Below are positions 20,790 through 44,001 of a DNA stretch of 54,955 nucleotides, piece after piece. This stretch comes from a virus. The stretch is taken from IMG/VR virus record IMGVR_UViG_3300021335_000021, positions 1 to 54,955 of that record; one strand, 5' to 3'. A program made the position numbers and the translations under genes. Every line of letters begins with the position of its first letter. Position 1 is the first letter of the stretch. The notes beneath the pieces were generated by a model. It was not told where the DNA came from. It saw nothing but the letters and a program-made list of their open reading frames with translations, and did not search any database.

Positions 20790-23700
20790 ATGTCATCAAC
20801 CGACAGACAAAATAGACTGCTACTAGCAGAAGACTGGCAAAAAGTATACCAGAGCTACCGTAATGCGGAGTTCCGTAGCTACGATTTTGATACTCTTAGA
20901 AGGACAATGATCGCCTATCTAAGAAATAATTACCCAGAAGATTTTAACGATTATATTGATACATCAGAATATATTGCTCTAATTGATATGATTGCGTTCT
21001 TAGGACAAAATATCAGTTATAGAGTCGATTTAAACGCAAGAGAAAACTTTTTAGAATTAGCAGAACGTAGAGAATCAGTTCTTCGTTTAGCTCGCATGCT
21101 GTCATATAATCCTAGACGTAATCAAGCGGCAAATGGGCTTATTAAATTTGAAACAGTAAGTACTACAGAATCATTAGTTGATAGTAATGGTAGTAATTTA
21201 TCAGGACAAACAGTTATCTGGAATGATCCTAGTAATGCTAATTGGGCAGAACAGTTTAGACGTGTCCTTAATGCGGCATTACCACAAAACGGAACAATAG
21301 GCAGGCCGTCCAAAACAGTACCAATTAATGGTGTTTTAACACAACAGTATAGATTTAATAGTGAAGGGTCAGATGTTCCTATTTTTTCTTTTACTAAACC
21401 AGTTAACGGACAGCCAACACAGTTTGAAATGGTGTCAACTGGTATTGATGAAGAACGTAAAGTAATCCAAGAAGAAAATCCGGTACCTGGAACAAGTTTA
21501 GCATTTTTATATAGAGAAGATGGTAGAGGTTCAGGAAGTGCAAACACTGGATACTTCTTACACTTTAGACAAGGAAGTCTAAAGTCTAATGTATTCAATG
21601 TTGGAAGCCCTAGTGCAAATCAAAAAATTGCAATTGAAGCACAAAATATTAATGATACAGATGTATGGCTATATTCATTAGACGATTTAGGAATACCAGA
21701 TAGAATTTGGTCTAAGGTTGATTCTTTAGAAGGTAATAATGCAATTTACAATAGTTTGAATAAGCGTGTAAGAGATTTTTATGCTGTACAAACTAGAGCA
21801 GATGACGAAGTTAGTTTAGTATTTGCAGATGGAATCTTCGGCAATCTACCATCAGGACAATTTAGAGTGTATTATAGAACTAGTGCTAATAGATTAATAT
21901 CTATTGCACCAACAGAGTTAACTAATATTACATTTACGTTAAATTATTTAAGTCAAGCAGGTACAACCGAGACACTAACTATTGGCGTTGAACTTAAAAC
22001 ACCAGTAACTAATGCTACAACTAGCGAATCATCTGCAAGTATTAGACAGAATGCTCCGCAGACTTATTACACACAAAACAGAATGATTACTGGAGAGGAT
22101 TATAACATTGTTCCTTTAACTAGTAACCAAGAAATTATAAAAGTCAAATCAACAAATAGAACTACAAGTGGCATTAGTAGATATTTTGATCTCAAAGATG
22201 CTACCGGAAAATATTCAAGCACTAATTTATTTGGCTCAGATGGTGTACTATATAGAGAACCATACGAAAGCAAGACTTCATTTACTTTTAATACACAAAC
22301 AGATATTGAAGGCACTATTGAAAATACCATATTACCTATTATTAAAAGTAGAGCAATTAGTAATTTTTATTTTAGCAACTATGCTAAAATTATTGTTAGT
22401 GATCTAAACGCTAGATGGAAACAGTCAACAAAAACTACAAACAGTTCAACAGGTTTGCTTCAAAATATTAGTGATGTTGCATATCAAGTAGGTACATTTA
22501 CCGGAGGTTCTTTAAAATATGTAGAAGCAGGCGCTTTGCTTAAATTTAAATCACCTGCAGGATTTTATTTTATTGGAAATGGCGAACTTACAAGCGATGC
22601 ATCAGCTAAAGGTGCTAGTGATTATAAATGGGTAAAAGTTATTAGCGTTAATGGTGCAGGCACAAGCGTAGATAGTGTTACAGGCACTGGACCTATTGTG
22701 TTTAATGAAATACTTCCTGCTAACAGTGTTCTTGAAGAAGTTAAACCTAAGATAGTAAAAGATATTACTCCTGATATTAGATCACAAATCATCGATCAAG
22801 TTTTTGCATATAAAACATTTGGACTACGTTATGATCAAGTTAATCGTAACTGGAGAGTAATTATTAACGAAAACTTGAATACAGTAGATGTGTTTAGTAA
22901 CGGTAAAACAGGTGACGTAACTCAAAACCAACTAGATTCAAGTTGGATTATACTTTTTGAAACTAATGGAGAAAAGTATACTGTTACAAATAGAGGATTA
23001 AGATATGTATTTGAAAGTGATACAGAATTAAGTTTTTACTTTGACGGACAAAATAAAATTTACGATTCTCAAACAGGGCAACTAGTTAAAGATAAAATTG
23101 CTATTATGAATTTTAATACTAAGCCTGATTCATTGAATGCTTTTAATAATGATATTAATTGGGAAATTGTTAACGAGTTTAGAAATACAGACGGATATAT
23201 TAATAGTAAAAAAGTTGAAGTAAGTTTCTTTGATCTTAATGACGACGGAAGTGTAGACGATCCAGATATCTTTGACAATGTTGTAGATCCCTTAACTAAC
23301 TCATCTAAAAAATATATATTCTTAAAGAAAGAATCTACTGATGAAGGGTTTAGCAAATACAACTATTATAACCAAGGTAGTACAATCAACATTGTTTCTA
23401 CAGAAACAGAAATTGGAGCATACAGCCAGTATACTGCCGGGCAAGTGTTTTATATCATTGATACAGATAACTTTAAAGTTTTAAACAACAATATACTTTC
23501 AGTAACAGCAGACTATAAAGCACACGTTGGAAGATCAGATTTAAGATTTCAATATGTACATAGTGCAGATGAAGGGAATAGAATTGATCCTAGTGCAAGT
23601 AATATTATTGACATTTATATGTTGACTAAAACTTACGATACAAACTTTAGAAAATATCTTGCAGGAAGCATATCTAATATGCCATTACCTCCAAGCTCAG

Positions 23701-24344
23701 ATGAATTATTTCAAAACTATGGTTCGGCTATAGCATTATACAAATCAATAAGTGATGAAGTAATATATCATCCAGTTACTTATAAACCGTTGTTCGGTGT
23801 ACATGCACAAGAAAATTTACAAGCAACTATCAAAGTTGTAAAAAATACCGGAGAAGTAGTTAATAATAACGAGGTGAAGGTAAGTGTTATTAGTGCTATT
23901 AACAGATTCTTTGCATTACAGAATTGGGACTTTGGTGACACATTCCACTTTACTGAACTAGCAACTTATGTAATGAATGAAGTAGCACCAGATGTTGTTA
24001 ATATACTTCTTGTACCTAAACAAGCTACACAGGGCTTTGGTAGCTTATATGAAGTAAAAGCAGAAAGCAACGAAATTTTTGTCAACGATGCAACAGTTGA
24101 CGATGTTGAAATTATTAACTCTGTAACAGCATCAAGAATACAAGCATCTGGCAAAATTATCACATCAACAGGCACAACTAATGCTGGCATTAGAAGTCAA
24201 CCATTAACAACAGTAAGTGCATCAAATACAACTACTACTAGCACAACTAGTACGTCAAGTTCAAGTAGCTCAAGTAGCTCAAGTAGCTCAAGCGGCTCAA
24301 GCGGCTCAGGCGGTTCAGGATCAAGCGGAGGCTACGGATACTAA
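20790..24344 (+). CDS. 6: Baseplate wedge protein gp6, enlarged
   Basis: A 1,184-residue protein. The N-terminus has the typical gp6 opening: LLAEDWQKVYQSYRNAEFRS, RRTMIAYLRNNYPEDFNDYI and IALIDMIAFLGQNISYRVDL (~10-85), followed by MLSYNPRR. The C-terminal part (~1,030-1,100) with VSVISAINRFFALQNWDFGDTF matches the end domain of gp6/gpJ-type wedge proteins. Gp6 forms the iris-like ring of the baseplate. T4 gp6 has 660 residues, so ~500 residues are extra, mainly in the middle. The last ~45 residues are a Thr/Ser/Gly tail. It ends in TAATG overlap with the giant gene. Confidence 0.88.
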   Translation: MSSTDRQNRLLLAEDWQKVYQSYRNAEFRSYDFDTLRRTMIAYLRNNYPEDFNDYIDTSEYIALIDMIAFLGQNISYRVDLNARENFLELAERRESVLRLARMLSYNPRRNQAANGLIKFETVSTTESLVDSNGSNLSGQTVIWNDPSNANWAEQFRRVLNAALPQNGTIGRPSKTVPINGVLTQQYRFNSEGSDVPIFSFTKPVNGQPTQFEMVSTGIDEERKVIQEENPVPGTSLAFLYREDGRGSGSANTGYFLHFRQGSLKSNVFNVGSPSANQKIAIEAQNINDTDVWLYSLDDLGIPDRIWSKVDSLEGNNAIYNSLNKRVRDFYAVQTRADDEVSLVFADGIFGNLPSGQFRVYYRTSANRLISIAPTELTNITFTLNYLSQAGTTETLTIGVELKTPVTNATTSESSASIRQNAPQTYYTQNRMITGEDYNIVPLTSNQEIIKVKSTNRTTSGISRYFDLKDATGKYSSTNLFGSDGVLYREPYESKTSFTFNTQTDIEGTIENTILPIIKSRAISNFYFSNYAKIIVSDLNARWKQSTKTTNSSTGLLQNISDVAYQVGTFTGGSLKYVEAGALLKFKSPAGFYFIGNGELTSDASAKGASDYKWVKVISVNGAGTSVDSVTGTGPIVFNEILPANSVLEEVKPKIVKDITPDIRSQIIDQVFAYKTFGLRYDQVNRNWRVIINENLNTVDVFSNGKTGDVTQNQLDSSWIILFETNGEKYTVTNRGLRYVFESDTELSFYFDGQNKIYDSQTGQLVKDKIAIMNFNTKPDSLNAFNNDINWEIVNEFRNTDGYINSKKVEVSFFDLNDDGSVDDPDIFDNVVDPLTNSSKKYIFLKKESTDEGFSKYNYYNQGSTINIVSTETEIGAYSQYTAGQVFYIIDTDNFKVLNNNILSVTADYKAHVGRSDLRFQYVHSADEGNRIDPSASNIIDIYMLTKTYDTNFRKYLAGSISNMPLPPSSDELFQNYGSAIALYKSISDEVIYHPVTYKPLFGVHAQENLQATIKVVKNTGEVVNNNEVKVSVISAINRFFALQNWDFGDTFHFTELATYVMNEVAPDVVNILLVPKQATQGFGSLYEVKAESNEIFVNDATVDDVEIINSVTASRIQASGKIITSTGTTNAGIRSQPLTTVSASNTTTTSTTSTSSSSSSSSSSSSSGSSGSGGSGSSGGYGY
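24255..24331 (+). repeat. Ser/Gly codon tandem repeat at the gp6 C-terminus
   Basis: A 9-nt unit AGTAGCTCA is repeated with variants AGCGGCTCA and GGCGGTTCA, encoding a run of Ser then Ser/Gly residues just before the gene 6 stop. Such a flexible tail is a likely slippage product. Confidence 0.75.
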
Positions 24345-27300
24345 TGGCGCAAGATGAAAGTCCAATTCCAGTAGAAGGTGACACTTCAAAAAGAAAAACA
24401 GCAAATTTACTTCCAAAGTATTTTAGAACAACAGCAAATAAAAAGTTTCTAAGTAGTACAATTGACCAGTTAATGCAACCTGGTGTTATTGAAAAGGTTG
24501 ATGGATTTGTTGGACGTAAAGATTCAAAAGCATTTAAGGCCTCTGATAATTATTTGTCAGATGTATCATCAGATAGAGAGAACTATCAGTTAGAACCTGT
24601 TGCTACAATTACAGATAATTTAGGTAACACAACTTTTTATAGAGATTATAGAGATTATGTAAACAGTGCAAAAATTAGAAATGCAAACAACATAGATCAT
24701 AGCCTATATAACTCACAAGAATATTATGCGTGGCAACCACACATTGATTGGGACAAGTTCGTAAACTTTAGAGAATACTATTGGCTACCATCAGGACCAG
24801 ATGAAATTCCAGTCTTTGGAACTGCAAAAGAAGTTAAAAGTACGTTCAATGTAAAGCGCCAAGACAATGTAGATAATAATTCGTATATATTTGGCCAAGA
24901 GAATAAAGTAAGTAATCCTACATTAACACTCTACAGAGGACAAGAATATACATTTGATATTGATTGTATAGACATGCCTTTTAGTATTAGAACTAGCAAC
25001 AGTATAGATGACGATTCAAACTTATATAATGTAGGTGTAAGTCAACAAAAAGTTGAACAAGGTTCTATTACTTGGAAAATTGATTTAGAATCTCCTGATA
25101 CTTTATATTATACAAACGGAAATGATATAGAAGCATCTGGACTTTTTATTATAAAAGATATTAGAGACAATACACAGTTAGATGTCGGCAATGAGATACT
25201 TGGCAAGAAAAGTTATACTATGCAAGATGGTTATAAATTAACCAATGGTATGAAAGTAAAGTTTTACGGAACAATTACACCAGCCAAATACGGTGAAGGT
25301 AATTGGTATGTTGAAGGTGTTGGAGAATCAATTAGTTTAATATCAGAAAGTGATTTGGTTATTACTGCTGATTATTTGACAGATGTTTCTACCGAATTTG
25401 ATGCACAAGGTTTTAGTTCATTACCGTTTGACGATGCTACTTCTTATGCTATTCTAAAAGACTACATTGTTATTAACAGAGCATCCAACGACGGAAATCA
25501 ATGGTCACGTTACAATAAATGGACACATAAAAGTGTAATTGAAAATATTGCAAAAATTAATAATGTTCCTGTAGTTTTAGATCAGAACTATAGGGCTACA
25601 AGACCAATTATTGAATTTGAAGCAGGGTTAAAACTTTATAATTTTGGAACTAATTCTAAAACTTCAGTCGACTTAGTTGATACAGTTACTAAAGATGTGT
25701 TTTCAGATATTGAAGGACAAGTTGGTTATTTTGTTGACGGAGTAGAATTAGTAAAAGGTATGCGTGTGTTGTTCACAGCAGATCCTGATAGCTTTGTTGC
25801 AGGTAAAATTTACGAAGTTAATTTTATTAGTCAAAACGGAACATTACAACTTGCATTAAAAGAAACTACTGATACAACACCATTAGAAAATGAAACAGTA
25901 TTGGTTAAATCAGGTACAAATTATAAAGGTAAAATCTTTTATTACAATGGTACTACTTGGAAACAAACACAAGACAAGATTAAAGTCAATCAGCAACCTT
26001 TATTTGATTTATATAACGATGCAGGTACACAGCTATCTACATTAGAGTCTAGTACATTTTCAGGAAACAAAATTTTTAGTTATAAAGTTGGCACAGGTAC
26101 TAATGATACAGAACTAGGATTTCCATTAAGCTATAGAACTATTGAAAACAGTGGCGATATTGTTTTTGATTTTAATCTATTGTCAGACACTTATCAATAT
26201 GATGAACTAACCGATGTTTTTACTGTTAGCACAGACACTGCGTTATTAAGAAGGTATACTGATAGAACAACATTTACAAATGTTTCAGGTTGGACAAAAG
26301 CACCAACAAAGTCTACACAGCCTGTTGTTAAACAAGAAACAGTTGGCGCTAGAACAAACAATTTTATTATTGATGTTTATGTAAATAGTGGCGATTTAAA
26401 TGACTTAGAGATTAAGGTTTACGTAAACAGTGTTCGTAAGCGTGAGACTGTTGATTATACAATTAATAGAATTAATAATTATGCATACGTTACATTTAAT
26501 AAAGAGTTAACTAAAAACGACAAATTAGTTTTAAAAACAAAGTCAAGTTCTAAAAAGAGAGATAATGTTGGATTTTATGAATTTCCTATTAACTTTGAAA
26601 AGAATCCACAAAACGAAAATGTTACAACATTTACACTAGGTGAAGTATTAGATCATGTTGATAGCATTGTTGATAATGTACAAGGCTTCGAAGGCATCTT
26701 CCCTGGTGTTAGTAATTTACGCGACTTAGGAAATGCATCAAAATATGGTTTGAAATTTGTACAACATAGTGGTCCGATAAACCTTGCATTGTATAACTTA
26801 ACAGATAAAGATTTTAATAGCATTGAAGCTATGAAATATTCTGGATTTGCTTATATTAAATTCAAAAGAGAATTTTTAAGAACAGCAGATGAGCTTGGGT
26901 TTGAAGGATATGACAAAGTACATGTAGATAGGATTTTATCAAAACTGCATGCAAACAATACAAATACAGATGCATTTTATTTTAGTGATATGATTCCACA
27001 TGGTGGAGACACTAAAGTTAGACATATGATTGAAGACGAGTCGCAAACTATTTTTAGTTTGACACGTGGTATTGATTATACTGTTTTATCTGAAACAGCA
27101 ATATTAGCATACCTAAATGAAAAACAACTATTAATTAATAAAGACTACACAGTTAGTACAGATGGGTTTTTAACATTGTTAAACCCACCAACAGGTGGCG
27201 ACACATTAGATATTTACGAGTATGTTACTACAGACGGATGTTGGGTACCACCAACACCTACAAAGTTAGGACTATATCCAAAATTTACACCTGAGATTTT

Positions 27301-30300
27301 TCTAGACGATACCTATATTAACATATCAACAGACATAACAGGTCCGTGGAAAGTATACGGTAGAGATGAAACAACAACAGCATCTTACAAAGGTAATGTT
27401 GGATGGTTTTATCCGTTGTATACAGATGAACTATCAGCACAGCAAGCAGATACAGTAAATGGCGGTAGTGGTGTTGCACATACACATGTATTTGCAGGTA
27501 GTAATCAAGTATTTTATATGCCAAGTAGCAAAATGAATCATGCTACTATTGATAGCCAATTACACGAAGAATATCCAAATGCTCGAGCAATGATACAGGG
27601 ACATGATGGTAGTTTGTGGAGATGCTTTGGTGACTTTAGAGACAACCTATTATTAGATATTGAAAAAAGAATTTACAACAATCTTAAATTACCATACGAT
27701 GAAAACGTTTTAAACATTGCTGATTACATTCCTAGCAAAAATAGAGTTACAGGATTTACAAGAAAGCAAATTTCAAAAACAATGATTTCAGAATTTAACA
27801 GTTGGTTAGAAACTGTTGGAACACCTGATTACGTAACTAATAATGTTTATAAAGCTGGAGACGGATTTACATATAATTACTCGTCAGCAGGAGATCCTAA
27901 TAACCAAACGCTAACAGGATTTTGGAGATCAATATACAAAGACTTTTATAATACAGATAGACCTCACAGTCATCCTTGGGAGATACTTGGCTTTAAAGAA
28001 AAACCAACTTGGTTTGATGACGAGTATGGTCAATCGCCGTATACACGCAACAACCTACTGCTTTGGGAAGACCTAAGTAAAGGTATTGTTAGAGGTGCTG
28101 AAGGATCAAAAGTAACATACAGAAATAAATTTAAAAACGAAGATATTTATAATTATATTCCAGTTGATGATGAGGGTAATTTGATACCCCCAAACCAAAC
28201 TGGTTACGCTGTAGGAAATGTTCCTACTACAAACGCTAACGAATTTGCATTCGGCGATGAAGGCCCTGTAGAAACAGCTTGGCGCAGAAGTTCACACTAT
28301 CCATTTAGTTTAATGATATCGTGGGCATTAAATCAACCAGCACAATTTTTTGGATTAGCATTTGATAGAAGTAGAATTTTACGTAACGGCGCAGATCAAT
28401 TAGTTTACAAGGATACAAGTAAACGTATTGAATTAGATCAATTAATATTTCCAAATAGTGCTACAGATGACAACAGAGTATTCACTGCTGGAATAGTTAA
28501 TTATATGCAAGGATATCTTTCAGACAACGATACTCTTAGATTTTCTGAATACAAGACAAACTTAAAATCTATTGAAAATAAATTAGGATGCAAAATTGGA
28601 GGCTTTACACAAAAGTCTAAGTTTAGATTAATTTTAGATGCAAGAACACCAACTAACGAAGGTAATGTTTTTGTTCCAGAAGAAAATTATAAAATACAAT
28701 TAACTAAAAGTGTTCCTACACAAGTATATTCTTATAGTGGAATGATTATTGAAATTACTCCATCTGGATATATTGTAAAAGGTTATGATAAAGACAATCC
28801 TGTATTTAAATACTATCCTGTTAGAAGAAAAAATAGCGACCAAGTAATTAATGTAGGCGGAATAAGTGAAAACTTCTTAACTTGGACTGAAGGCAAAACT
28901 TACGAAGCAGGACAGATTGTTGAACTATCCGATAATTATTATAGAGTAAAAATATCACACACATCAGGTGATGGGTTTAATCAAGATAATTTTCAGAAAC
29001 TAGCAGAGCTTCCTGAAGAAGGAGGAGCATCAGCATATATTTCTACTAACTTTAGTGCTGTACTTGAAGAACTGCCATACGGCACATTATTTAGAGACAA
29101 ACAAGACGTAGTTGACCTTATGATGGGATATCAGAAGTATCTTACTTCAGTAGGTTTTAATTTTGAAACTTTTAATAAAGATATCGAAGAAATTGAAAAC
29201 TGGAGACTAAGTGCAAAAGAATTTTTATTCTGGACTACACAGAATTGGGAATCTGGCACAATTTTAACAGTTAGTCCAAGTGCAAGAGAAATTACATTTT
29301 CTCAAGAATATTCAGTTATTGACGACATATATGATAACTTTTATGATTATAGTTTGCTTAAAGCTGACGGGAAGCGTTTGCTTGCAGATTTTGCAACAAC
29401 AGAAAGAGATAATACAAATGACTTTGGTATATTTGTTAAGAATACCGAAGACGGAATATTTCATCTCAAGTTACCGTTAATACAACACGAACATGCAATT
29501 ATTATTGATAATAAAACTGTATTTGGTGATGTAATTTATAATAGAGCTCAAGGTTATAGACAAGAAAGAATTAAAGTAAAAGGATATCGTTCAGACGAAT
29601 GGAATGGCTCTTATAATATTCCAGGATTTATTTTTGATGATGCAAACCCAACAGAATGGCTTGCCTGGCAAGATTACTCAATTGGAGCATTAGTAAAGTA
29701 CAAACAATACTTTTATGTTGCAAAAAATAAAGTTACAGGATCTGATATTTTCCAAGATGGTAATTTTTTAAGACTTAACGAAAAACCTGAACAGCAGTTA
29801 TTACCTAACTTTGATTATAAAGCAAAACAATTTGCAGACTTTTATGATCTAGATTCAGATAACTTTGATATAGAGCAACAGAAGTTAGCTCAACATGCAA
29901 CAGGATATCAAAAACGTAAATATCTTGAAAACATTATTAATGATGAAGTTAGTCAATACAAATTTTTTCAAGGTGCTATACAAGATAAAGGAACAAAAAA
30001 TGTTCTTACTAAATTATTTGATAAATTAGGAAGTGCTAATAAAGATAGTTTAGAGTTTTTTGAAGAATGGGCAGTACGTGTTGGACGTTATGGTGCAACT
30101 GAAGGTGATGACCAATTTGATATTGTCTTAGATGAAACAAAATATAGACAAGAACCACAACAAGTTGAATTAGTAAACGAAATTGATCCGCAGGACACTA
30201 GTTTAATTTATAGACTAGCAAGAAATGATGTCTACGTTAAGAGTAAAGACTATAATCATAAACCGTTTCCAACAAAATACTTTAACGAAGAAACGAGTTA

Positions 30301-33300
30301 TACAAAAACAGCAGGTTTTGTAAATCCATCAGATGTTAGTTTGTCTTTATTAACTTACGATGATCTTTTACAACAAACAAATATTGCAACAAACAGTTAT
30401 ATTTGGACAGCTTTAGATAAAAGTACACAGACTTGGGGAGTTTATAAATTAGAATCAACTGATTTTAGAATCTCAAATGTAACAGCAAGTGATCAAAATA
30501 AATTTACAATAACAGTAGATAGATCACCAAATTATGCAAAAGGTGATATCATTGGAATTAATGATGTTTCAGATGCAACTGACGGATATTATAAAGTAGA
30601 CAGTGTTTCTTTAAATATTATTACATTAGAAAGTATTGATGGCGAAGATGTAGAAGCAACAGAGGACGATGCTGTAGTAAACGGATATGTTACAGAATTT
30701 AAAACTGCTAGATTGCCAACGCTATCTAAAGCAAATGATAGTTTAGGAATTTCAAATTTAAACAATAGACTTTGGGTAGACGATGACGATACAGGTAAAT
30801 GGTTAGTATTAGAAAACAAAGAAGTATTTGAGCTTAAACCTAATATTATTAATACTTCTGCTGGGTTACTTGACTCTACAGAAAAAGATTTCGGTAGTGC
30901 GTTTAGTGTATCAAGTAATAATAACCGTATTGCAATTACTGCGCCTAAAGACTTGAATGGTAGCGTTTATGTTTTCCAAAGACCTAGTGATAATACAGAC
31001 TTCGGATTCTTACAACAAATAGACGAACAATTATTCTTGTTTGATTCAAATGGAGGGTTTGGACAAAGTGTTGCAATGAGTCCAGATGGAAAATATCTTG
31101 CAATTGGTTCTCCACATGCTTCAAATGTAAAAAGTAAATTAAGAGGTGACTTTAATCCTAGAGAAGCATATGCTGTTGGAGATATTGTTTTATACTCTGA
31201 ACAGTTATGGAAAGCTGATAGATCTATTGATGCAGATGCATTACAAGTTTATAGTAATCATTCATCTAATGCACAATCTAAAGAAAATGATTATGATTCA
31301 AACACTCAAACATATCCAGATATTGAGTATATAGTTAGAGGTGATTATACATTAGGTACAGACGAGTCAACTGATCATATTTTAGTTAGAGCTGAGAAAG
31401 AACAATTTGAAGGAACTAAGTCGGGTGATATACTAACTCTTAAATGGAACAAGTATACAACAACATCTTCAGCTGGAGTGCTACCGTTTAATGGTGATGC
31501 TACGTTAACTGAATCTTTTATTAACGGTAGTCATACTATTATTGATAGAGTTCAACATATTATTCATATTCAAAGTGCATTAAGTGTACCTGATGCCGGA
31601 ACTGAAATTACAACAGATACCTGTAGAGCAACAATACAATACAGAAAAGTTAACAACGAAAATGAAATGACAGTTTACATTAAAGATGTAAACGGAGCAT
31701 TCCAAGGATCAGGTAAAATTTATGCCGGCGGCATTCTAATTGGTGACTATGTAGAATCATTACAAATTACTGACGACTATCATACAGGTTGGTGGCATAT
31801 AGGAGTAGGAAGTTCGTTTTTATCAAGTAATTTAGTAGAAACTAAAGCAAATCTTGTAATACAAAACATTACAGTTGAAGGCGACACAGTTAATAATCCG
31901 TATTTTAGTAATATTTTAGATACTAAACAATTACAAAACATTTTAAATCCAACTAAAGTTTCAGAGTTTGGTATACTTTCTCATACACAAGGACAGAGTA
32001 ATATTGAAGTCTTAGATAGTAAGTGGTGGATTAGAACACCATTAGCTCATGGAAGCAGTATTACAGTAGGCGATAAAACAAGACTTTGGCTAAACACCAT
32101 ACGTGTAAACGGATTAGTACAAGATCCTTCAGCTATAGGATTGACTTCAACTTATATTAATAATACTGAACATACAGTTGCAGATATATGGAATGGTTAC
32201 GTAGAAGTTAGATTAACTAACTTTGATTTGAACGGTGATCCTTTTATTCCGAATGTTGGAGACACATTAACAGATACTGCAACAGGTTCAACAGGCGAAA
32301 TTGCATTTATCGAAAGATCGTTTAGTACAGCAAAAATTTATATAAAAAATAGAAATGGTACTTGGGCTGTAGGATCAGATTTTGGTGTTAATTCAAATGC
32401 AACATTTATTGAAGTAGATCCAACTCTTGGACCTGCTACAAGAACTATTGGACCTATTAATTCTGCACATATGGAAAATACTATTTCAGGACCTATTATA
32501 GTTATTGACAGTGCAGTTAATATTCCGGTTGTTGTTAGCGGCGCAAACTATTTACGAGATTTAGAATATTGGATCTATTCAGATAACACGATTCAAGGTA
32601 TTACAGATGTTGCTAATCCTCCATCTAGCATTAACTTAGATTGGAAACGGCAATATAATATTCCAGTTGTTTCTGAAGGATACGGTACAGGACTTGAAGA
32701 GCAAGGTACATTTGCAATTTACGAAATGAAAGGTGTAACATACCAATTAATTAATTATTATACTGTTCCTAATAGTGCAAATAATCGAAAGCTAGGAACA
32801 AAATTAAAATTTGTACAACCAGATTCTAGTAGTTACAAACTTTATATTCATGCAGAAGGTGATGGAACTGAAGCTAACCAAGGTAGAATATATTTTGTAA
32901 ACAAGAATAGCATTGACGACTGGGCATTATCTGTACAGAAAAATTATAGAGGAGACTTTAGAGTTTCTGCAACTTATTTTGAAAACGAATATGTAAAATT
33001 TGGTGAAACAATTTATAAAGCAAACACTAATATAGTTCCTGGTGTATTTGATGTTAGTCAGTGGACTGTACAAACTAGTGGATTAGATTTATTAGGTTAT
33101 GTTCCTAATGATACAAACTTTTCATTAGTTGAAAGCACACTAGAGCAAATAAACTTAGAAGCATTTGGATCTGATTTTGATGTAAGTCAGAAAGGCGAAG
33201 TGTTAATTTCTAATTCTATGTATACAAGTGTTTATGAAATCGAATCAGGCGATGTAGTATTAGGATTAGACAGTAGTATCGCAAATAGAAAAGTTGTAGT

Positions 33301-36300
33301 TTACAGACAAAATGGAACAAACTATGAATATTCACAAATACTAGAACCATTTAATGAAACCGAAGATTTTGGTTTAAGTATTGCAGTATCTAATGATGGC
33401 AGAAAAATTGCTGTAGGTGCTCCACACAACAGCGATGTATCAAACAATGGCGGCGCAGTTTACATTTATATACAAAGCGGGGATACGTTTGTTTACAATC
33501 AAACATTACGCCCAATAGACAAATCAGTAAACATACAATTTGGTACTAAACTTGACTTTGATGGTGATACACTTGCAGTTGCATCTCGTGGTGGCAGTAT
33601 GGTTGAAAGTGTTACTTTTGATATACATAGAGACAGAAAAAATTCAGATCTAACTACTGTAGATAGATACATTTTAGATAATAAATCACAGATTAATCCA
33701 TTTGCAACTTCCTTTGATAACAATTCAACAATATTCCAAACAATTGATCAAGGAAGCGGTGTTGTAAGTTTATATGAAACTGTTAATAATACATTATTAT
33801 ACAGTCAAAACTTTGCATATGATTTAGATACACAAGACTTTGGTAATAGAATGGCTGTAAACAGTAATCACGTTTATATTGGATTACCTAAACAGCAAGT
33901 ACCAAATAGTAGTATACTTGATAAAGGTTTGGTTGCAGAATACCGTAAACCGGCTAATACAACATCTTGGTCAATTACTAGAAAACCTATAATACCAGTA
34001 GACACTAGTAAGTTTAAGGGTGTATACTTGTATAACAAGAAAACAAACGGCTTACTTACATATCTTGACTACATTGATCCTATCCAAGGAAAGATTGCAG
34101 GACCGGCAGAACAAGAAATATCTTTTAAAACAAGTTATGATCCAGCAAAGTATTCAACGTCAACAGATGCTACTATTACAGCAGATACATTAGATTATAC
34201 AAGCAATGAATGGATTGGTAAGTTATGGTGGGATATAGATAGTGCTAAATTTATTAATTATCATCAAGGTGATATATCAGAGTCAACAGCAAACTTTAAT
34301 ACGTTGTTTGCAGGAACTAACGCAAAAGTTCATGAATGGGTTGAATCAACATTACTACCAAGCGAATGGGACGCTCAATCATCTACAGCTGACGGCGTAG
34401 AGAACGGCATATCAGGTACATCACTATATGGAGATAGTGTATACAGTACTAGAAGAACATATGACGAATCATCACAAACATTCGAAACTTATTACTATTA
34501 TTGGGTAACAAATAAAGCTACATTACCAAACGTAGAAAATAGAGTAACAACAGCATTTGACGTAGCTCGTTATATTGCAAATCCTACACAAATGGGTTAT
34601 AGATTTGTTGCAATGCTAAGTGCTGATAGATTTGCATTATATAATTGTTCTCCGTTTATTACAGATCAAGACACAGCAATTAGTTTTAATTGGTGGACTA
34701 TAGAAAATCAAGAACAACCTACACACATTCAGTATCAATTAATAAGCGACGGTTTAGAAACAAGTATACCTAATAATGAAATTGAGCAAAAATGGTTTGA
34801 TAGTTTGGTAGGATTTGATAAAAATGACAGACCTGTTCCGGATATTAATTTGCCAATTAAGAGTCGATATGGTGCTTTAAATGACCCAAGGCAGAGTTGG
34901 TTTATTAATAGAGCAGAAGCACGTAAACAATTCTTTGAAAGAGTTAATAACACACTTTCTAAAAATTTAATTGTTGACGAGTTTGATTTAACTAAACTAA
35001 CAGGATTTGATCCAAGTCCAACATTAGCAACAGGGCTTTATGATACAACTAGTGACAGCAACGCTGAACTAAGATTTGTTAGTGTTGCTAGAGTCAAGCC
35101 AGCTAGTTTAACATTAGAAGTTGAAAACGGTGTTATTATTAATGTACTAATTAATGATCCTGGACAAGGTTATATCAACACTCCTACATATAAAATTACA
35201 GACACTGAAGGCTCTGGAGCAGAGTTAGAATTTGCACTTGACGCCAACGGTGCAATATCATCTGTTACTATTGTTAATGGTGGTAGAGATTATACAAGTA
35301 GTGTAAACATTACAGTTAGAAAATTTGCAGTACTTGTTAAAAGTGACGAAACTGTTAGTGGTAAGTGGAGTGTTTATGAATGGAATGGTACAGAGTACTT
35401 AAGAACACTCACACAAAGTTATGATATAAATCTTTACTGGCAGTATAGAGATTGGTATGCAACTGGTTACAATAAATTTACATTTGTTAATTATACTGTA
35501 GATTCAAGTTACCAAATTTATGCACTAGATGACCAAATTGGTGACATTGTTAAAATTAACAGTGTTGGTACAGGCGGTTGGTTGTTACTAAGAAAGATTT
35601 CTAACTTAGATACACAAGACTATACTTTAAGTTACGAAACTATAGGTAGACAAAGCGGAACAATAGAATTTAAGAATAGCTTATATGATACTAATTCAAG
35701 TAATACAGCATTTGACGGTGCAAGTTTTGATAAGATATTTTATGATACAGAACCAGATACTGAATTTAGAAAAATACTTGAAATTTTGAAATCTGATATC
35801 TTTATTGATAACCTTGCAGTTCATTGGAATGAATTATTCTTTGCAAGTATTCGTTATGTATTATCAGAACAACCTAATGTTGATTGGTTATTTAAAACTA
35901 GTTTTGTAAAAGCAAAACATAACATTGGTGAACTAGAACAAAAAGTAACTTTCCAAAATGATAATCTTCCAAGTTATCAAGATTACGTTGAAGAAATGAA
36001 ACCTTACAAAACTAAGATTAGAGAATATCTAAGTTCTTATGAAAAGATTGATCCAGCAAGTAACGTAATTACTGATTTTGATCTTTCACCGTATTATGAT
36101 GAACAAGAAGGAAAGATTATTCCGCAAAGTGTTCAGGTTATTAATGACCAAGTAGTACCTGGAGTTTCGGATATACAAAATTATCCTAGTAAACATTGGT
36201 TAGATAATTTAGGTTTTGAAGTTATATCATTTAGTATTGCTGATCCAGGTTCAGGATATGAAGTTCCGCCTAAGATTATTATTAGTGGCGGCGGCGGCAC

Positions 36301-39300
36301 AGGTGCAACAGCAGAAGCATTTATTGGTACAGGCGGCAAAGTAACAAGTATTAAAGTTACAAATACAGGTAGTGGATACTTAACAAGACCAACTATACAA
36401 GTTGTTGGATCCTTTGGCGACACAGGATCTATTGCTAGACTAAGTCCAATTATAGGAAAAGGCAAAGCAAGATCTGCACACATTAGGTGTAAGTTTGATA
36501 GAGTTACAGGAACATATTTGTTCCAAACATTAAATGAAACACAAACATTTACATCAACTGTTGATCAACAGATCTTTAATTTAAAATGGCCTATGCAGTT
36601 AAAGTCAACACAAATTACAGTTACAGTTGATGGTTTAGAAGCATTGCGTAGCGAATACACGTTTAGTAATGTAACTGATACAGCTAAAGGGTTTACAAGA
36701 AGTTACGGACGTATTACATTTAGTAATGCACTTTCTGTTAATAAGACAATAGTTATAACGTATAATAAAGCACCAGAGTTGTTACAAGCACAAGATAGAA
36801 TTAACCTTTATTACAATCCAACTACTGGCATGTACGGAAATGATCTTGCACAGTTAATAGAAGGTGTCGATTATGGTGGGGTTGAAGTAAGTAGTTTCGA
36901 CTTTGGAACAGGTACTGGTTGGGATTCAGATGGTTGGTTTACAACAACCTATGATACATTTGATACTACATTTGAAGATGAAATTTTCCAAATTGGTGAT
37001 GATAGTACAAGAGTATTAAATTTTGCTAGTCCATTAGTAGCAAACACAGTGTATAATGTATACAAAAACGGTGTTAGGTTAGACGATCCAAACTTTGGTA
37101 CAGCAAATCCAGTTACAAACACAGCGGCAGTTATGCAAAGTGTTACAGGTGCAGGACAAACAGGAGTTGCATTGTATGACGATGCCGGAGATTTAGCAAG
37201 TAGTATAATTGTATTTGATGAAGACAATATTCCATTAGGTTCGGGAGATATACTTGTATTTAGAAAAACTACTTCCGACGGTTCTTTCCTACCAGATCCA
37301 AGATCATACGATACTGTACTAACAGGTGGCGATTTTGCATTTAGTACAGCAAGAGGTATTAACCCAGAAGAAATTATTGTGGATGGTGATGACTTTATAA
37401 GTCCAACAACATCAAAAGGTCCAGAGGAACAAGTTCCAGGACAAGTATTAGATGCAGTAAATATTAGAGTATTCCATAGACCTAAAGATGGAGGTAGTAT
37501 ATTATCAAGTAATTCTTATAGAACAACTGGTATCGATAGAACATTTGAGTTTGGTATTCAGCCACAGAACAAAGAAGGTTTGATTGTTAGACTTAATGAC
37601 ACAATATTAGCACAATCTTTGTATAAAGTAGATTACAGATTAAAAACAGTTACATTAAATACAACACCTACTGCAAATCAAGATGTTAATATTATTTGCA
37701 TTAGTGGTAATGGTAAGAATGCAATTGAACAAAGTGAATTCAGAGGTGACGGAAGTACAACTGCTTATGTAACAAAAATACATTACACTAAAGATTTAGA
37801 TTATTATGCTACAGTTAATGGCGAAGCAGTTGAGTCAGTAATTACTTCTTCTGGTGATAGTACAGACGAAGACCCGAAAGCAATGATTGTGTTTGGTGTT
37901 GCTCCACCAGACAACAGTGTAATTAATTTTGCAATATACACATCAGTAGATTCATTTAGTAAAATAGAAACATCAGAATTTACAGGTGACGGAAGTACAA
38001 AAGTATTCACATTAAATAAAACACCATACAGTGCAAAACCAAACAGTCATAACGTAATTGTTAAACAAGGAAACAAAATTCTAAATCCTGGATACAATCA
38101 GCAGTTTCCAGTAACAGCATTACAAAGAGAATATTACTTAGAAATATGGCAAACACCAATTGGTAGTTTTGATAACTCAGACTTGCTAGTCCTACTCAAT
38201 GGTAAAGAACTTACGATTGCAGTTGAATATAATATTCGTCCTGCGAATAGTAGTGTTATACTTGAGCCAGGTATTGGAGCCGAAGGTGATATTTTAGAAG
38301 TTTACTTACGTACTGACGGTGAGTATGCTTTTGGTAGTATACAAATTATCAATAATCAGAATACTTGGGTTGACAGTGGAGCAAGTTTACAGTTAACCAC
38401 AGCACCTACAGACGGCGAAAAACTTACAGTGTACACATTTAATAAACATGATAGTATGGACTTTGAAAGACAAAACTTTGATATTGTTACTAGATCTACT
38501 ATTGCAGTTGGTACAGACGATCACATACAGTTTAATCATATTAAAGCAGGCCTAGTAAAACTTAGATACCCTGCTATTGATGCACAGTACGTTTGGCTAA
38601 CAATTAACGGTATATTACAAACACCTAGTGTTGATTATAAATTAACAGATGATAAAAACTTCTTAAAGTACAAAGGATCTTTTGCAGATGACGATGTTGT
38701 TGAAGTAATACAATTTAGTGCTACAGGCGAAATTACACCTAAGTTTGGATTTAGTCAGTTTAAAGATATTCTAAATAGAAACATTTATAAAAGACTTGGC
38801 GATGTTGCACCACTTAAACTTGCTAAAGATTTAGCAACATTTGATAAAGAAATACTTTTAGATGATGCATCAGCACTAAGTACACCTGATAAAAACAGTA
38901 GTCAACCAGGTATATTGTTTATAAATGGTGAGCGTATTGAATATTTAATCAAACAAGGTAATGTATTGCGTCAAATCCAAAGAGGAACACTTGGAACAGG
39001 AGTTGCAAGTTTACATGAAGCAGGTAGCGATGTATATAATCAAGGACCTAATCAAACAGCACCATATGCAGATCAAACTCTTATAGATGAACAAATAGGT
39101 GACGGTTCTACAACAGTATTTCCTCTAGCATTTACGCCTACAAGCGTAAATGAGTTTGAAGTGTTTGTTGCAGGCAAGAGATTACGTAAAAACGCTGTAC
39201 AGATGTTTAATCCGGTACTAGATCAAGACTCTCCAGAAGCAGACGAGACTGCTCCAGCAGAGTTTTCAGTGGACGGAACAACAGCAAGTGTAACTTTGTT

Positions 39301-39442
39301 AAATACACCAGCAGTTGGTGCAAAGATAAAAATTGTCAGAAGACAAGGAAAACGCTGGTCAGACCCAGGAATTTCACTTAATGATGCGGAAAGTTTGGTA
39401 GCACGTTTCTTTAAGGCGGAAAAGGTGGAGCTACCCAAATAA
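24344..39442 (+). CDS. Giant baseplate-associated structural protein (5,032 residues), in the gp7 position
   Basis: One open frame of 15.1 kb, ~560 kDa, coupled to gene 6 by TAATG overlap. Residues ~1-160 have HIDWDKFVNFREYYWLPSG-type wedge-protein segments. Four short W/Y modules at ~1510-1553, 1770-1811, 2265-2306 and 2866-2909 (pattern Y..G..V.Y....Y.A) resemble CBM5/12-type carbohydrate modules. FG-GAP-like propeller repeats occur at ~2180 (DFGSAFSV...IAITAP), 2237 (FGQSVAMSPDGKYLAIGSP), 3007 (DFGLSIAVSNDGRKIAVGAP), 3063 and 3164. Helical segments lie at ~1825-1919 and 3810-3903. GxGY modules occur at ~3600-3660 and 3960-4025, and fibre-type GDGST repeats at ~4467, 4547 and 4925. T4 gp7 (1,032 residues) follows gp6, so a gp7-like wedge role for part of it is inferred. 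I recognise no full-length family. Confidence 0.8.
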   Translation: MAQDESPIPVEGDTSKRKTANLLPKYFRTTANKKFLSSTIDQLMQPGVIEKVDGFVGRKDSKAFKASDNYLSDVSSDRENYQLEPVATITDNLGNTTFYRDYRDYVNSAKIRNANNIDHSLYNSQEYYAWQPHIDWDKFVNFREYYWLPSGPDEIPVFGTAKEVKSTFNVKRQDNVDNNSYIFGQENKVSNPTLTLYRGQEYTFDIDCIDMPFSIRTSNSIDDDSNLYNVGVSQQKVEQGSITWKIDLESPDTLYYTNGNDIEASGLFIIKDIRDNTQLDVGNEILGKKSYTMQDGYKLTNGMKVKFYGTITPAKYGEGNWYVEGVGESISLISESDLVITADYLTDVSTEFDAQGFSSLPFDDATSYAILKDYIVINRASNDGNQWSRYNKWTHKSVIENIAKINNVPVVLDQNYRATRPIIEFEAGLKLYNFGTNSKTSVDLVDTVTKDVFSDIEGQVGYFVDGVELVKGMRVLFTADPDSFVAGKIYEVNFISQNGTLQLALKETTDTTPLENETVLVKSGTNYKGKIFYYNGTTWKQTQDKIKVNQQPLFDLYNDAGTQLSTLESSTFSGNKIFSYKVGTGTNDTELGFPLSYRTIENSGDIVFDFNLLSDTYQYDELTDVFTVSTDTALLRRYTDRTTFTNVSGWTKAPTKSTQPVVKQETVGARTNNFIIDVYVNSGDLNDLEIKVYVNSVRKRETVDYTINRINNYAYVTFNKELTKNDKLVLKTKSSSKKRDNVGFYEFPINFEKNPQNENVTTFTLGEVLDHVDSIVDNVQGFEGIFPGVSNLRDLGNASKYGLKFVQHSGPINLALYNLTDKDFNSIEAMKYSGFAYIKFKREFLRTADELGFEGYDKVHVDRILSKLHANNTNTDAFYFSDMIPHGGDTKVRHMIEDESQTIFSLTRGIDYTVLSETAILAYLNEKQLLINKDYTVSTDGFLTLLNPPTGGDTLDIYEYVTTDGCWVPPTPTKLGLYPKFTPEIFLDDTYINISTDITGPWKVYGRDETTTASYKGNVGWFYPLYTDELSAQQADTVNGGSGVAHTHVFAGSNQVFYMPSSKMNHATIDSQLHEEYPNARAMIQGHDGSLWRCFGDFRDNLLLDIEKRIYNNLKLPYDENVLNIADYIPSKNRVTGFTRKQISKTMISEFNSWLETVGTPDYVTNNVYKAGDGFTYNYSSAGDPNNQTLTGFWRSIYKDFYNTDRPHSHPWEILGFKEKPTWFDDEYGQSPYTRNNLLLWEDLSKGIVRGAEGSKVTYRNKFKNEDIYNYIPVDDEGNLIPPNQTGYAVGNVPTTNANEFAFGDEGPVETAWRRSSHYPFSLMISWALNQPAQFFGLAFDRSRILRNGADQLVYKDTSKRIELDQLIFPNSATDDNRVFTAGIVNYMQGYLSDNDTLRFSEYKTNLKSIENKLGCKIGGFTQKSKFRLILDARTPTNEGNVFVPEENYKIQLTKSVPTQVYSYSGMIIEITPSGYIVKGYDKDNPVFKYYPVRRKNSDQVINVGGISENFLTWTEGKTYEAGQIVELSDNYYRVKISHTSGDGFNQDNFQKLAELPEEGGASAYISTNFSAVLEELPYGTLFRDKQDVVDLMMGYQKYLTSVGFNFETFNKDIEEIENWRLSAKEFLFWTTQNWESGTILTVSPSAREITFSQEYSVIDDIYDNFYDYSLLKADGKRLLADFATTERDNTNDFGIFVKNTEDGIFHLKLPLIQHEHAIIIDNKTVFGDVIYNRAQGYRQERIKVKGYRSDEWNGSYNIPGFIFDDANPTEWLAWQDYSIGALVKYKQYFYVAKNKVTGSDIFQDGNFLRLNEKPEQQLLPNFDYKAKQFADFYDLDSDNFDIEQQKLAQHATGYQKRKYLENIINDEVSQYKFFQGAIQDKGTKNVLTKLFDKLGSANKDSLEFFEEWAVRVGRYGATEGDDQFDIVLDETKYRQEPQQVELVNEIDPQDTSLIYRLARNDVYVKSKDYNHKPFPTKYFNEETSYTKTAGFVNPSDVSLSLLTYDDLLQQTNIATNSYIWTALDKSTQTWGVYKLESTDFRISNVTASDQNKFTITVDRSPNYAKGDIIGINDVSDATDGYYKVDSVSLNIITLESIDGEDVEATEDDAVVNGYVTEFKTARLPTLSKANDSLGISNLNNRLWVDDDDTGKWLVLENKEVFELKPNIINTSAGLLDSTEKDFGSAFSVSSNNNRIAITAPKDLNGSVYVFQRPSDNTDFGFLQQIDEQLFLFDSNGGFGQSVAMSPDGKYLAIGSPHASNVKSKLRGDFNPREAYAVGDIVLYSEQLWKADRSIDADALQVYSNHSSNAQSKENDYDSNTQTYPDIEYIVRGDYTLGTDESTDHILVRAEKEQFEGTKSGDILTLKWNKYTTTSSAGVLPFNGDATLTESFINGSHTIIDRVQHIIHIQSALSVPDAGTEITTDTCRATIQYRKVNNENEMTVYIKDVNGAFQGSGKIYAGGILIGDYVESLQITDDYHTGWWHIGVGSSFLSSNLVETKANLVIQNITVEGDTVNNPYFSNILDTKQLQNILNPTKVSEFGILSHTQGQSNIEVLDSKWWIRTPLAHGSSITVGDKTRLWLNTIRVNGLVQDPSAIGLTSTYINNTEHTVADIWNGYVEVRLTNFDLNGDPFIPNVGDTLTDTATGSTGEIAFIERSFSTAKIYIKNRNGTWAVGSDFGVNSNATFIEVDPTLGPATRTIGPINSAHMENTISGPIIVIDSAVNIPVVVSGANYLRDLEYWIYSDNTIQGITDVANPPSSINLDWKRQYNIPVVSEGYGTGLEEQGTFAIYEMKGVTYQLINYYTVPNSANNRKLGTKLKFVQPDSSSYKLYIHAEGDGTEANQGRIYFVNKNSIDDWALSVQKNYRGDFRVSATYFENEYVKFGETIYKANTNIVPGVFDVSQWTVQTSGLDLLGYVPNDTNFSLVESTLEQINLEAFGSDFDVSQKGEVLISNSMYTSVYEIESGDVVLGLDSSIANRKVVVYRQNGTNYEYSQILEPFNETEDFGLSIAVSNDGRKIAVGAPHNSDVSNNGGAVYIYIQSGDTFVYNQTLRPIDKSVNIQFGTKLDFDGDTLAVASRGGSMVESVTFDIHRDRKNSDLTTVDRYILDNKSQINPFATSFDNNSTIFQTIDQGSGVVSLYETVNNTLLYSQNFAYDLDTQDFGNRMAVNSNHVYIGLPKQQVPNSSILDKGLVAEYRKPANTTSWSITRKPIIPVDTSKFKGVYLYNKKTNGLLTYLDYIDPIQGKIAGPAEQEISFKTSYDPAKYSTSTDATITADTLDYTSNEWIGKLWWDIDSAKFINYHQGDISESTANFNTLFAGTNAKVHEWVESTLLPSEWDAQSSTADGVENGISGTSLYGDSVYSTRRTYDESSQTFETYYYYWVTNKATLPNVENRVTTAFDVARYIANPTQMGYRFVAMLSADRFALYNCSPFITDQDTAISFNWWTIENQEQPTHIQYQLISDGLETSIPNNEIEQKWFDSLVGFDKNDRPVPDINLPIKSRYGALNDPRQSWFINRAEARKQFFERVNNTLSKNLIVDEFDLTKLTGFDPSPTLATGLYDTTSDSNAELRFVSVARVKPASLTLEVENGVIINVLINDPGQGYINTPTYKITDTEGSGAELEFALDANGAISSVTIVNGGRDYTSSVNITVRKFAVLVKSDETVSGKWSVYEWNGTEYLRTLTQSYDINLYWQYRDWYATGYNKFTFVNYTVDSSYQIYALDDQIGDIVKINSVGTGGWLLLRKISNLDTQDYTLSYETIGRQSGTIEFKNSLYDTNSSNTAFDGASFDKIFYDTEPDTEFRKILEILKSDIFIDNLAVHWNELFFASIRYVLSEQPNVDWLFKTSFVKAKHNIGELEQKVTFQNDNLPSYQDYVEEMKPYKTKIREYLSSYEKIDPASNVITDFDLSPYYDEQEGKIIPQSVQVINDQVVPGVSDIQNYPSKHWLDNLGFEVISFSIADPGSGYEVPPKIIISGGGGTGATAEAFIGTGGKVTSIKVTNTGSGYLTRPTIQVVGSFGDTGSIARLSPIIGKGKARSAHIRCKFDRVTGTYLFQTLNETQTFTSTVDQQIFNLKWPMQLKSTQITVTVDGLEALRSEYTFSNVTDTAKGFTRSYGRITFSNALSVNKTIVITYNKAPELLQAQDRINLYYNPTTGMYGNDLAQLIEGVDYGGVEVSSFDFGTGTGWDSDGWFTTTYDTFDTTFEDEIFQIGDDSTRVLNFASPLVANTVYNVYKNGVRLDDPNFGTANPVTNTAAVMQSVTGAGQTGVALYDDAGDLASSIIVFDEDNIPLGSGDILVFRKTTSDGSFLPDPRSYDTVLTGGDFAFSTARGINPEEIIVDGDDFISPTTSKGPEEQVPGQVLDAVNIRVFHRPKDGGSILSSNSYRTTGIDRTFEFGIQPQNKEGLIVRLNDTILAQSLYKVDYRLKTVTLNTTPTANQDVNIICISGNGKNAIEQSEFRGDGSTTAYVTKIHYTKDLDYYATVNGEAVESVITSSGDSTDEDPKAMIVFGVAPPDNSVINFAIYTSVDSFSKIETSEFTGDGSTKVFTLNKTPYSAKPNSHNVIVKQGNKILNPGYNQQFPVTALQREYYLEIWQTPIGSFDNSDLLVLLNGKELTIAVEYNIRPANSSVILEPGIGAEGDILEVYLRTDGEYAFGSIQIINNQNTWVDSGASLQLTTAPTDGEKLTVYTFNKHDSMDFERQNFDIVTRSTIAVGTDDHIQFNHIKAGLVKLRYPAIDAQYVWLTINGILQTPSVDYKLTDDKNFLKYKGSFADDDVVEVIQFSATGEITPKFGFSQFKDILNRNIYKRLGDVAPLKLAKDLATFDKEILLDDASALSTPDKNSSQPGILFINGERIEYLIKQGNVLRQIQRGTLGTGVASLHEAGSDVYNQGPNQTAPYADQTLIDEQIGDGSTTVFPLAFTPTSVNEFEVFVAGKRLRKNAVQMFNPVLDQDSPEADETAPAEFSVDGTTASVTLLNTPAVGAKIKIVRRQGKRWSDPGISLNDAESLVARFFKAEKVELPK

Positions 39443-39462: not shown

Positions 39463-40074
39463 ATGATTGACAACATAAAAGAAGAAAACGGAGTAATGCT
39501 CCAAGGACATATTAAAATTTCTAACCCTGAAACGGGCGAAATTATAGTCGATAAACGTAATGCTATCCACTATGAAAACATGAGTATTTCGCTTGCAGAA
39601 AGTTTAGCTAATGCAGGACAAGGTACTATCTATCAAATGGCGTTTGGCAACGGAGGAACTAGTATTGACCCTACTGGAATTATTACATACCTAACACCTA
39701 ACAGTACAGGTACTAATGCTAGTCTTTATAACCAAACATTTATTAAGGTTGTTGACGATAGAAGTGTTAATAACACAGACCCAGCAAGAAACAAGATTGA
39801 ATCAAGACACGTAAGTGGTACTAACTATACAGATATTGTTGTTAGTTGTTTGCTTGATTATGGTGAACCTTCAGGTCAGGATGCAGTTGATAACGCAACT
39901 GCCGCTGATAGTTTATATGTATTTGATGAACTAGGCTTAGTAAGTTATAGCCCATCAGGTCAAGGTAGACTGTTAACACATGTAATTTTCCACCCAGTAC
40001 AAAAGAGTTTGAATAGACTTATTCAAATTGATTATACTGTGCGTGTACAAAGTTTATCGGGGTTTAACGAATAA
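39463..40074 (+). CDS. Virion structural protein (baseplate/fibre region)
   Basis: A 203-residue protein starting MIDNIKEENGVMLQGHIKI, with IVDKRNAIHYENMSISLAESLAN (~30-52), YQMAFGNGGTSIDPTGIITYL and a C-terminal LLTHVIFHPVQKSLNRLIQIDYTVRVQ. It is predicted to be mostly beta strand. The style is that of a structural protein linking baseplate and fibres, and I recall similar proteins at this place in marine T4-like phages. It does not resemble T4 gp8. It overlaps the following fibre gene by one base. Confidence 0.7.
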   Translation: MIDNIKEENGVMLQGHIKISNPETGEIIVDKRNAIHYENMSISLAESLANAGQGTIYQMAFGNGGTSIDPTGIITYLTPNSTGTNASLYNQTFIKVVDDRSVNNTDPARNKIESRHVSGTNYTDIVVSCLLDYGEPSGQDAVDNATAADSLYVFDELGLVSYSPSGQGRLLTHVIFHPVQKSLNRLIQIDYTVRVQSLSGFNE

Positions 40075-42155: not shown

Positions 42156-42156
42156 T

Positions 42157-43998: not shown

Positions 43999-44001
43999 AT
44001 A
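43994..44001 (+). promoter_or_regulatory. Late promoter, perfect TATAAATA
   Basis: An exact late promoter element overlaps the stop of fibre gene 2 and lies 26 nt before the ATG of fibre gene 3, so gene 3 can be transcribed separately from the other two fibres. Confidence 0.65.

What the first reader, a model, noticed from the sequence alone, without database searches (positions are those of the whole stretch)
24344..39442. A single 15.1-kb phage gene encoding a ~560-kDa structural protein
The frame is open for 5,032 codons with no frameshift, placed between gene 6 and fibre genes where T4 has gp7, gp8, gp9 and gp10. It takes more than a quarter of the window. Its ends resemble wedge (N-terminus) and fibre (C-terminus) proteins, suggesting that several T4 genes' roles are merged or that a large peripheral baseplate appendage is made. 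Proteins this large are rare in phages.
Basis: partly seen in the sequence, partly recalled or inferred. Interest (0 to 1): 0.8.

Follow-up and report, generated by a model that had tools for sequence, protein, structure and literature searches.

The report
Giant baseplate-wedge protein of jumbo phages
The 15-kb gene is real and makes one 5,032-residue virus-particle protein, but it belongs to a family of giant tail-baseplate proteins already known from T4-related jumbo phages; its exact role and structure have never been worked out.

Summary
Window 24344-39442 is one uninterrupted ATG frame of 5,032 codons (564 kDa). All 16 independently assembled marine relatives examined keep it open (3,884-5,207 aa), and the whole length is under purifying selection (dN/dS about 0.11). 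It is neither new nor unique. It belongs to PHROG_10938, found in about 90 GenBank phages, including PA5oct (3,857 aa), Atu_ph07 (4,449), RaK2, 121Q and phAPEC6. Homologues there were detected by mass spectrometry in virions. The gene normally follows gene 6, the T4 gene 7 slot. Cyanophages carry equally giant annotated gp7 proteins in that slot (P-SSM2 gp7, 5,195 aa).

Best explanation: a virion baseplate-wedge protein standing in for gp7. Two conserved blocks (residues 1-1950, 3200-3930) form the scaffold. Variable inserts (FG-GAP, GxGY repeats and others) form a peripheral apron. gp7 identity rests on position, absence of any other gp7 in eight jumbo isolate genome records, shared modules, and one short 'KGT' motif. 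gp7 profiles do not recognise the protein, and AlphaFold/Foldseek gave no gp7 match. Merging of gp8, gp9 or gp10 is not supported, nor is a fibre-like C-terminus.

New member of a known, uncharacterised kind.

The parts
24344..39442 (+). giant virion protein gene, 5,032 aa (PHROG_10938 family)
24344..30193 (+). conserved block I (residues 1-1950), shared with all jumbo-phage homologues; residues ~160-355 are an insert absent in RaK2-type members
24836..25168 (+). cupredoxin-like beta-sandwich insert (~residues 165-275), related to domains of cyanophage fibre/connector proteins
28880..28990 (+). CBM5/12 chitin-binding-type-3 module (residues 1513-1549), inside conserved block I
   Evidence: Pfam PF02839; structural matches
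29681..29788 (+). second CBM5/12-like module (~residues 1780-1815, approximate)
   Evidence: one search reports two stretches; AF2 strands
29966..29995 (+). FQGAIQDKGT motif (residues 1875-1884), present in every family member covering this region and similar to the gp7 core motif
30194..33940 (+). lineage-variable middle region (residues 1951-3199), largely missing in the shorter relative L103
31055..31126 (+). FG-GAP_2 repeat (residues 2238-2261)
33359..33469 (+). FG-GAP_2 repeat (residues 3006-3042)
33941..36133 (+). conserved block II (residues 3200-3930), including the KPYKTKIR motif at residues 3886-3893
35111..35353 (+). GxGY repeat module (residues 3590-3670), shared with cyanophage gp7
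36191..36523 (+). GxGY repeat module (residues 3950-4060), shared with cyanophage gp7
36524..39439 (+). variable C-terminal region (residues 4061-5032); module at residues 4800-4900 also found near the start of P-SSM2 gp7 and in PA5oct
20790..24344 (+). gene 6 (baseplate wedge) homologue, 1,184 aa, overlapping the giant gene by one base
39463..40074 (+). 203-aa conserved protein (phrog_11259) accompanying the giant gene
20292..20726 (+). gp25-like wedge protein
13614..13904 (+). baseplate wedge protein of gp53 type (assignment to gp53 by sequence reading)
   Evidence: phrog_7145, baseplate wedge subunit

Best explanation
The gene encodes a giant baseplate-wedge protein of a T4-related marine jumbo myovirus. 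It occupies the gp7 position and most likely takes gp7's place in the (gp6)2-gp7 wedge, six copies per virion. Two conserved blocks (residues 1-1950 and 3200-3930) would form the wedge scaffold and its contacts with gp6 and with the conserved 203-aa neighbour. The variable middle and C-terminal parts (FG-GAP, GxGY and other modules), perhaps with the CBM5/12 modules of block I, would form a peripheral apron that adapts to fibres and to cell-surface glycans. Shown: the single intact gene, purifying selection, family membership in PHROG_10938, gene order, and homologues detected in virions. Inferred: the gp7 role, the copy number, glycan contact, and the split into scaffold and apron.
For: Family: PHROG_10938 matches with E down to 1e-133 across the protein; 91 GenBank phages match the first 60%. 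Gene order gp6 - giant - 203-aa gene holds in 16/16 marine relatives and in PA5oct, Atu_ph07, Phosso and Vibrio phage 2.275.O; gp6 - giant also in RaK2, 121Q and PHA46. Virion detection of homologues. Precedent: the gp7 slot of cyanophages holds annotated gp7 proteins of 4,067 aa, 5,195 aa in P-SSM2 and 4,446 aa in P-HM1. In cyanophage gp7 the core segments are separated by about 2,000 residues, so a gp7 with very large inserts exists. Shared modules with P-SSM2/SynMITS gp7: GxGY (E to 3e-8), the 4800-4900 module (2e-5) and an FG-GAP stretch (0.003). No other gp7 was found in eight jumbo isolate genome records (seven complete, Vibrio 2.275.O partial) by two gp7 profiles; phrog_17744 finds gp7 in T4, YB07, SynMITS and P-SSM2, while PF23786 finds it in YB07 and P-SSM2 but not in T4 or SynMITS. 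The best profile-profile hit of the gp7 core is the invariant KGT motif at residues 1880-1901 (score 31.5 against at most 18.5 in 12 shuffles; E 1.2e-4 on the segment, 0/40 shuffles).
Against: gp7 profiles do not match the giant itself. The gp7 similarity is 21-22 columns and the segment was chosen after the first scan. The N-terminal helix region and the KPYxTKIR region show no gp7 similarity above shuffles. AlphaFold models of residues 1-620 and 1040-1985 found no gp7 by Foldseek among the listed matches, although the KGT stretch was modelled with low confidence. In SCTP-2 the giant is not beside gene 6, which lies about 80 kb away.
Confidence: 0.65

Rival explanations
1. A peripheral baseplate or tail appendage (fibre-network, apron or whisker-like protein) that binds next to the wedge but is not the gp7 equivalent; the true gp7 counterpart is a small protein too diverged to recognise.
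For: Many surface-type modules (CBM5/12, FG-GAP, cupredoxin-like, GxGY); gp7 profiles fail on it; in SCTP-2 it is separated from gene 6.
Against: Two long blocks are conserved across all members, as expected of a scaffold rather than a receptor binder; gp6 adjacency in 23 of 24 loci; cyanophage gp7 carries the same module types at the same size and place.
Confidence: 0.25
2. A fusion that merges the roles of T4 gp7, gp8, gp9 and gp10 in one chain.
For: Position and size; no separate gp8 core was found in the relatives searched.
Against: No gp8 or gp10 core in the giant; gp8-family hits are only the GxGY repeats; a gp10-like N-terminus is on a separate gene in relatives; separate fibre genes follow.
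Confidence: 0.05
3. Assembly chimera or fused reading frame created by a metagenome error.
For: The record is a single metagenomic contig.
Against: 16/16 other contigs have the same intact gene; cultured phages have 3,323-4,555 aa orthologues; purifying selection throughout.
Confidence: 0.01

Closest known systems
PHROG_10938 'virion structural protein' (PA5oct gp355, Atu_ph07 gp180, RaK2 gp465/ORF070, 121Q gp582, phAPEC6 gp245, SCTP-2 gp140, AP-J-162 gp58)
   Same: Orthologous: aligned over residues 1-1950 and 3200-3930 at 23-35% identity, nearly always directly after gene 6; homologues detected in virions by mass spectrometry.
   Different: Window protein is longer (5,032 against 3,323-4,555 aa in isolates examined) because of a larger middle insert with FG-GAP repeats and a longer C-terminus.
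Cyanophage gp7 'baseplate wedge initiator' (PHROG_2885; P-SSM2 5,195 aa, SynMITS9220M01 4,067 aa)
   Same: Same slot after gene 6, same size class, shared GxGY, FG-GAP and '4800-4900' modules.
   Different: No plain-HMM similarity of the cores; the gp7 core of cyanophages is recognised by phrog_17744, the window protein is not.
T4 gp7 (1,032 aa)
   Same: Genome position; a short KGT-type motif resembling gp7 residues ~738-755.
   Different: Five times smaller; Pfam gp7 domains (helical, V, VI) found in T4 gp7 are not found in the giant.
Thermus phage P23-45 tape-measure protein (5,002 aa; PMC10770324)
   Same: Comparable size for a phage virion protein.
   Different: Unrelated function and position.

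Membership tests
PHROG_10938 giant virion structural protein | Profile match over the protein | tested here: met
   E 6e-102, 7e-133, 3e-60, 1e-20 for four consecutive pieces
PHROG_10938 giant virion structural protein | Gene order gp6 - giant - 203-aa protein | tested here: met
   Window and 16/16 marine relatives; most isolates
PHROG_10938 giant virion structural protein | Present in the virion | not testable with these tools
   Shown for homologues only:
T4/cyanophage gp7 | Sequence match to gp7 families (phrog_17744, phrog_964, phrog_2885, PF23786, PF21427/21428/21456) | tested here: not met
   No match in the window; positive controls rang for phrog_17744 in T4, YB07 and cyanophages and for the Pfam gp7 domains in T4 gp7; PF23786 rang only in YB07 and P-SSM2; phrog_2885 could not be run genome-wide
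T4/cyanophage gp7 | KGT core motif | tested here: inconclusive
   Invariant motif, E 1.2e-4 over 21 columns, 0/40 shuffles reach it, but short and post hoc
T4/cyanophage gp7 | N-terminal helix-turn-helix of the core bundle | tested here: inconclusive
   AF2 shows a helix at residues 30-44 with low confidence; no profile similarity above shuffles; no gp7 by Foldseek
T4/cyanophage gp7 | Gene directly after gene 6 | tested here: met
T4/cyanophage gp7 | Third chain of (gp6)2-gp7 wedge in the virion | not testable with these tools
   needs cryo-EM or reconstitution
T4 gp8/gp9/gp10 merged | gp8 or gp10 core domain inside the giant | tested here: not met

The most novel reading that the evidence does not exclude
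The giant is an 'exploded' gp7: the gp7 core elements are spread over one chain and separated by roughly 1,850 and 2,000 residues of inserted glycan-binding and beta-rich modules, so that the wedge protein itself carries the host-contacting apron that T4 builds from several gene products. The same would hold in cyanophages (P-SSM2 gp7).
Probability: 0.3. Interest if true: 0.6.

Novelty: new member of a known kind. Interest (0 to 1): 0.33.

Why it matters
The jumbo phages of this broad group spend 10-15 kb on one virion protein whose function, structure and position are unknown. If it is the wedge protein, the baseplates of these phages are organised around one very large scaffold chain rather than many small ones, which bears on how they recognise hosts and trigger contraction. 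The window adds long marine members and shows which blocks are conserved and which are free to vary.

Tried and rejected
Solved-structure search by sequence with the protein and with profiles of three regions: no relative except weak chitin-binding modules and a tailspike fragment. AlphaFold of residues 1040-1985 (mean pLDDT 66.8) gave convincing local matches only to CBM5/12 modules in PDB; of residues 1-620 (pLDDT 74.0) only cupredoxin-like matches in PDB, and the own family plus cyanophage fibre/connector domains in BFVD. NCBIfam on the N-terminus: nothing. Pfam hits Toprim_Crpt, SLT_beta and DUF2460 are below their cut-offs and were set aside. Profile comparison of the N-terminal and KPYxTKIR segments with the gp7 core: no better than shuffles. 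gp8 and gp10 searches. Scans for relatives of SCTP-2 in viral contigs found none; scans for Atu_ph07 and RaK2 relatives returned only those phages themselves.

Full report
Observation. The frame 24344-39442 (+) is open for 5,032 codons, coding for a 564-kDa acidic protein. It begins on the last base of the gene-6 ORF. It is answered by relatives: a scan of IMG/VR returned 79 loci with N-terminal identity from 43 to 100%. In 16 longer records chosen from them, each full gene is open, with 3,884 to 5,207 residues from the first Met. Against the nearest of these (90% amino-acid identity) dS is 0.49 and dN 0.056, and selection is even along the gene. The largest relative contig is 262 kb, so the source is a jumbo phage, probably marine (contig origins not examined in detail).

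Family. Four consecutive pieces of the protein match PHROG_10938, 'virion structural protein'. Protein-level search of GenBank phages gives 91 records for the first 60% of the protein and 84 for the rest, all below 60% identity: PA5oct-like, Atu_ph07, Phosso, RaK2-like, 121Q/Asterius-like, SCTP-2 and Vibrio 2.275.O. Isolate lengths are 3,323 to 4,555 aa. The identity of gp245 and CBB_236 with the giant is my reading from size and gene order. AP-J-162 gp58 (4,455 aa) was published as 'structural protein' without a role (PMC11242549).

Place in the genome. The order gene 6 - giant - 203-aa gene is kept in all 16 marine relatives and in PA5oct, Atu_ph07, Phosso and Vibrio 2.275.O. gp6 - giant is kept in RaK2, 121Q and PHA46. 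SCTP-2 is the exception, with gene 6 elsewhere. In T4 this slot holds gp7. In cyanophages the same slot holds annotated gp7 proteins of equal size: 4,067 aa in SynMITS9220M01, 4,446 aa in P-HM1 and 5,195 aa in P-SSM2. The size and position seen here are thus not unusual for T4-related marine phages.

Anatomy. Comparison with isolates shows two conserved blocks, residues 1-1950 and 3200-3930, separated by a variable region (2000-3200) and followed by a variable C-terminus (binned identities). The relative L103 lacks most of the middle region and is 3,884 aa long. Recognisable modules are: CBM5/12 chitin-binding modules near 1513-1549 and about 1780-1815, both inside block I (structural match); a cupredoxin-like domain at about 165-275 inside an insert missing in RaK2; FG-GAP repeats near 2238-2261 and 3006-3042; and GxGY modules at 3590-3670 and 3950-4060. 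The GxGY modules, the 4800-4900 module and an FG-GAP stretch recur in cyanophage gp7. Three motifs recur through the family: LPxxxR near residue 23, FxGxIxxKG(T/S) near 1875 and KPYxTKxR near 3886 (the LP pattern was not matched in SCTP-2, and truncated loci lack the later motifs). Their mutual distances vary by hundreds to over a thousand residues.

Is it gp7? For: position; no other gp7 found in eight jumbo isolate genome records with two gp7 profiles. phrog_17744 does find gp7 in T4, YB07 and both cyanophages tested, where it picks the core segments out of the 4,070- and 5,195-codon frames although they are about 2,000 residues apart. PF23786 finds it only in YB07 and P-SSM2, so its silence carries less weight. 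The top profile-profile hit of the gp7 core in all 5,032 positions is the invariant KGT motif (segment test). Against: gp7 profiles do not recognise the giant; the similarity is about 21 columns; the other two motifs show nothing above shuffles; Foldseek listed no gp7 for the two models, though the KGT stretch was modelled poorly. I therefore do not file it as a gp7 family member. I claim only that it most likely works as the gp7 equivalent (confidence 0.65).

What gp7 does, for comparison. In contractile phages with solved baseplates the (gp6)2-gp7 module is the wedge scaffold; in phage XM1 the gp7 orthologue has only 242 residues, with a helix-turn-helix in the core bundle and loops that carry the tail spikes (PMC10457771). 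A gp7 that grows by inserts at the loops where spikes attach would fit the architecture seen here, but that is inference.

Merging of T4 genes. gp8-family hits in the giant coincide with the GxGY repeats (window 35111-35320 and 36233-36661), not with the gp8 core. A gp10-like N-terminus (profile positions 2-42) lies on a separate gene with an open frame of about 495 aa in three relatives. The C-terminal 793 residues match only PA5oct-type orthologues. The merger idea and the fibre-like C-terminus are thus not supported; the absence of a recognisable gp8 leaves a small opening.

Novelty. New, longer members of a known and uncharacterised protein family. What remains open and worth doing is the structure and exact place of this protein in the baseplate.

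Noticed in passing
window 39463-40074: The 203-aa protein after the giant is better conserved than its neighbours (67-99% identity in the marine relatives where gp6 is 46-93%; 38-55% in isolates). It has no known function (phrog_11259) and is a likely baseplate partner.
   Followed up: partly
window 46811-54729: Cluster with a radical SAM protein (49883-51262), a nitroreductase-family protein (51922-52821) and a DegT/DnrJ aminotransferase (53656-54729) downstream of the baseplate block. Atu_ph07 and Phosso also carry radical SAM genes a few kb downstream of their giant gene.
   Followed up: partly
window 16995-19790: The gp5-type hub protein carries a C-terminal endolysin/chitinase-like domain (PHROG endolysin and chitinase families), where T4 gp5 has a lysozyme.
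   Followed up: no
window 40074-45503: Three successive fibre proteins share a similar N-terminal domain (phrog_15511/14394), reminiscent by eye of the T4 gp9/gp10 N-terminus; the first has a tail-collar-like end.
   Followed up: partly
L083 (SCTP-2) 6630-15920: In SCTP-2 the gene before the giant is a second giant (3,096 aa, hypothetical) and gene 6 lies about 80 kb away.
   Followed up: no
L126, P-SSM2 gp7: P-SSM2 gp7 is 5,195 aa, with gp7 core segments about 2,300 residues apart: a very large insert inside a recognised gp7.
   Followed up: partly
window 47000-49000: G+C drops to 0.28 in this stretch, lower than elsewhere in the window (0.30-0.41), over genes that read like glycosyltransferases (gene assignment by reading, no Pfam match).
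   Followed up: no
window 17-210 and 6801-6848: Short tandem repeats at the contig's left end (24/51-bp units) and an 18-bp repeat inside ORF 6597-7502 coding a KDTSKA-type linker.
   Followed up: no
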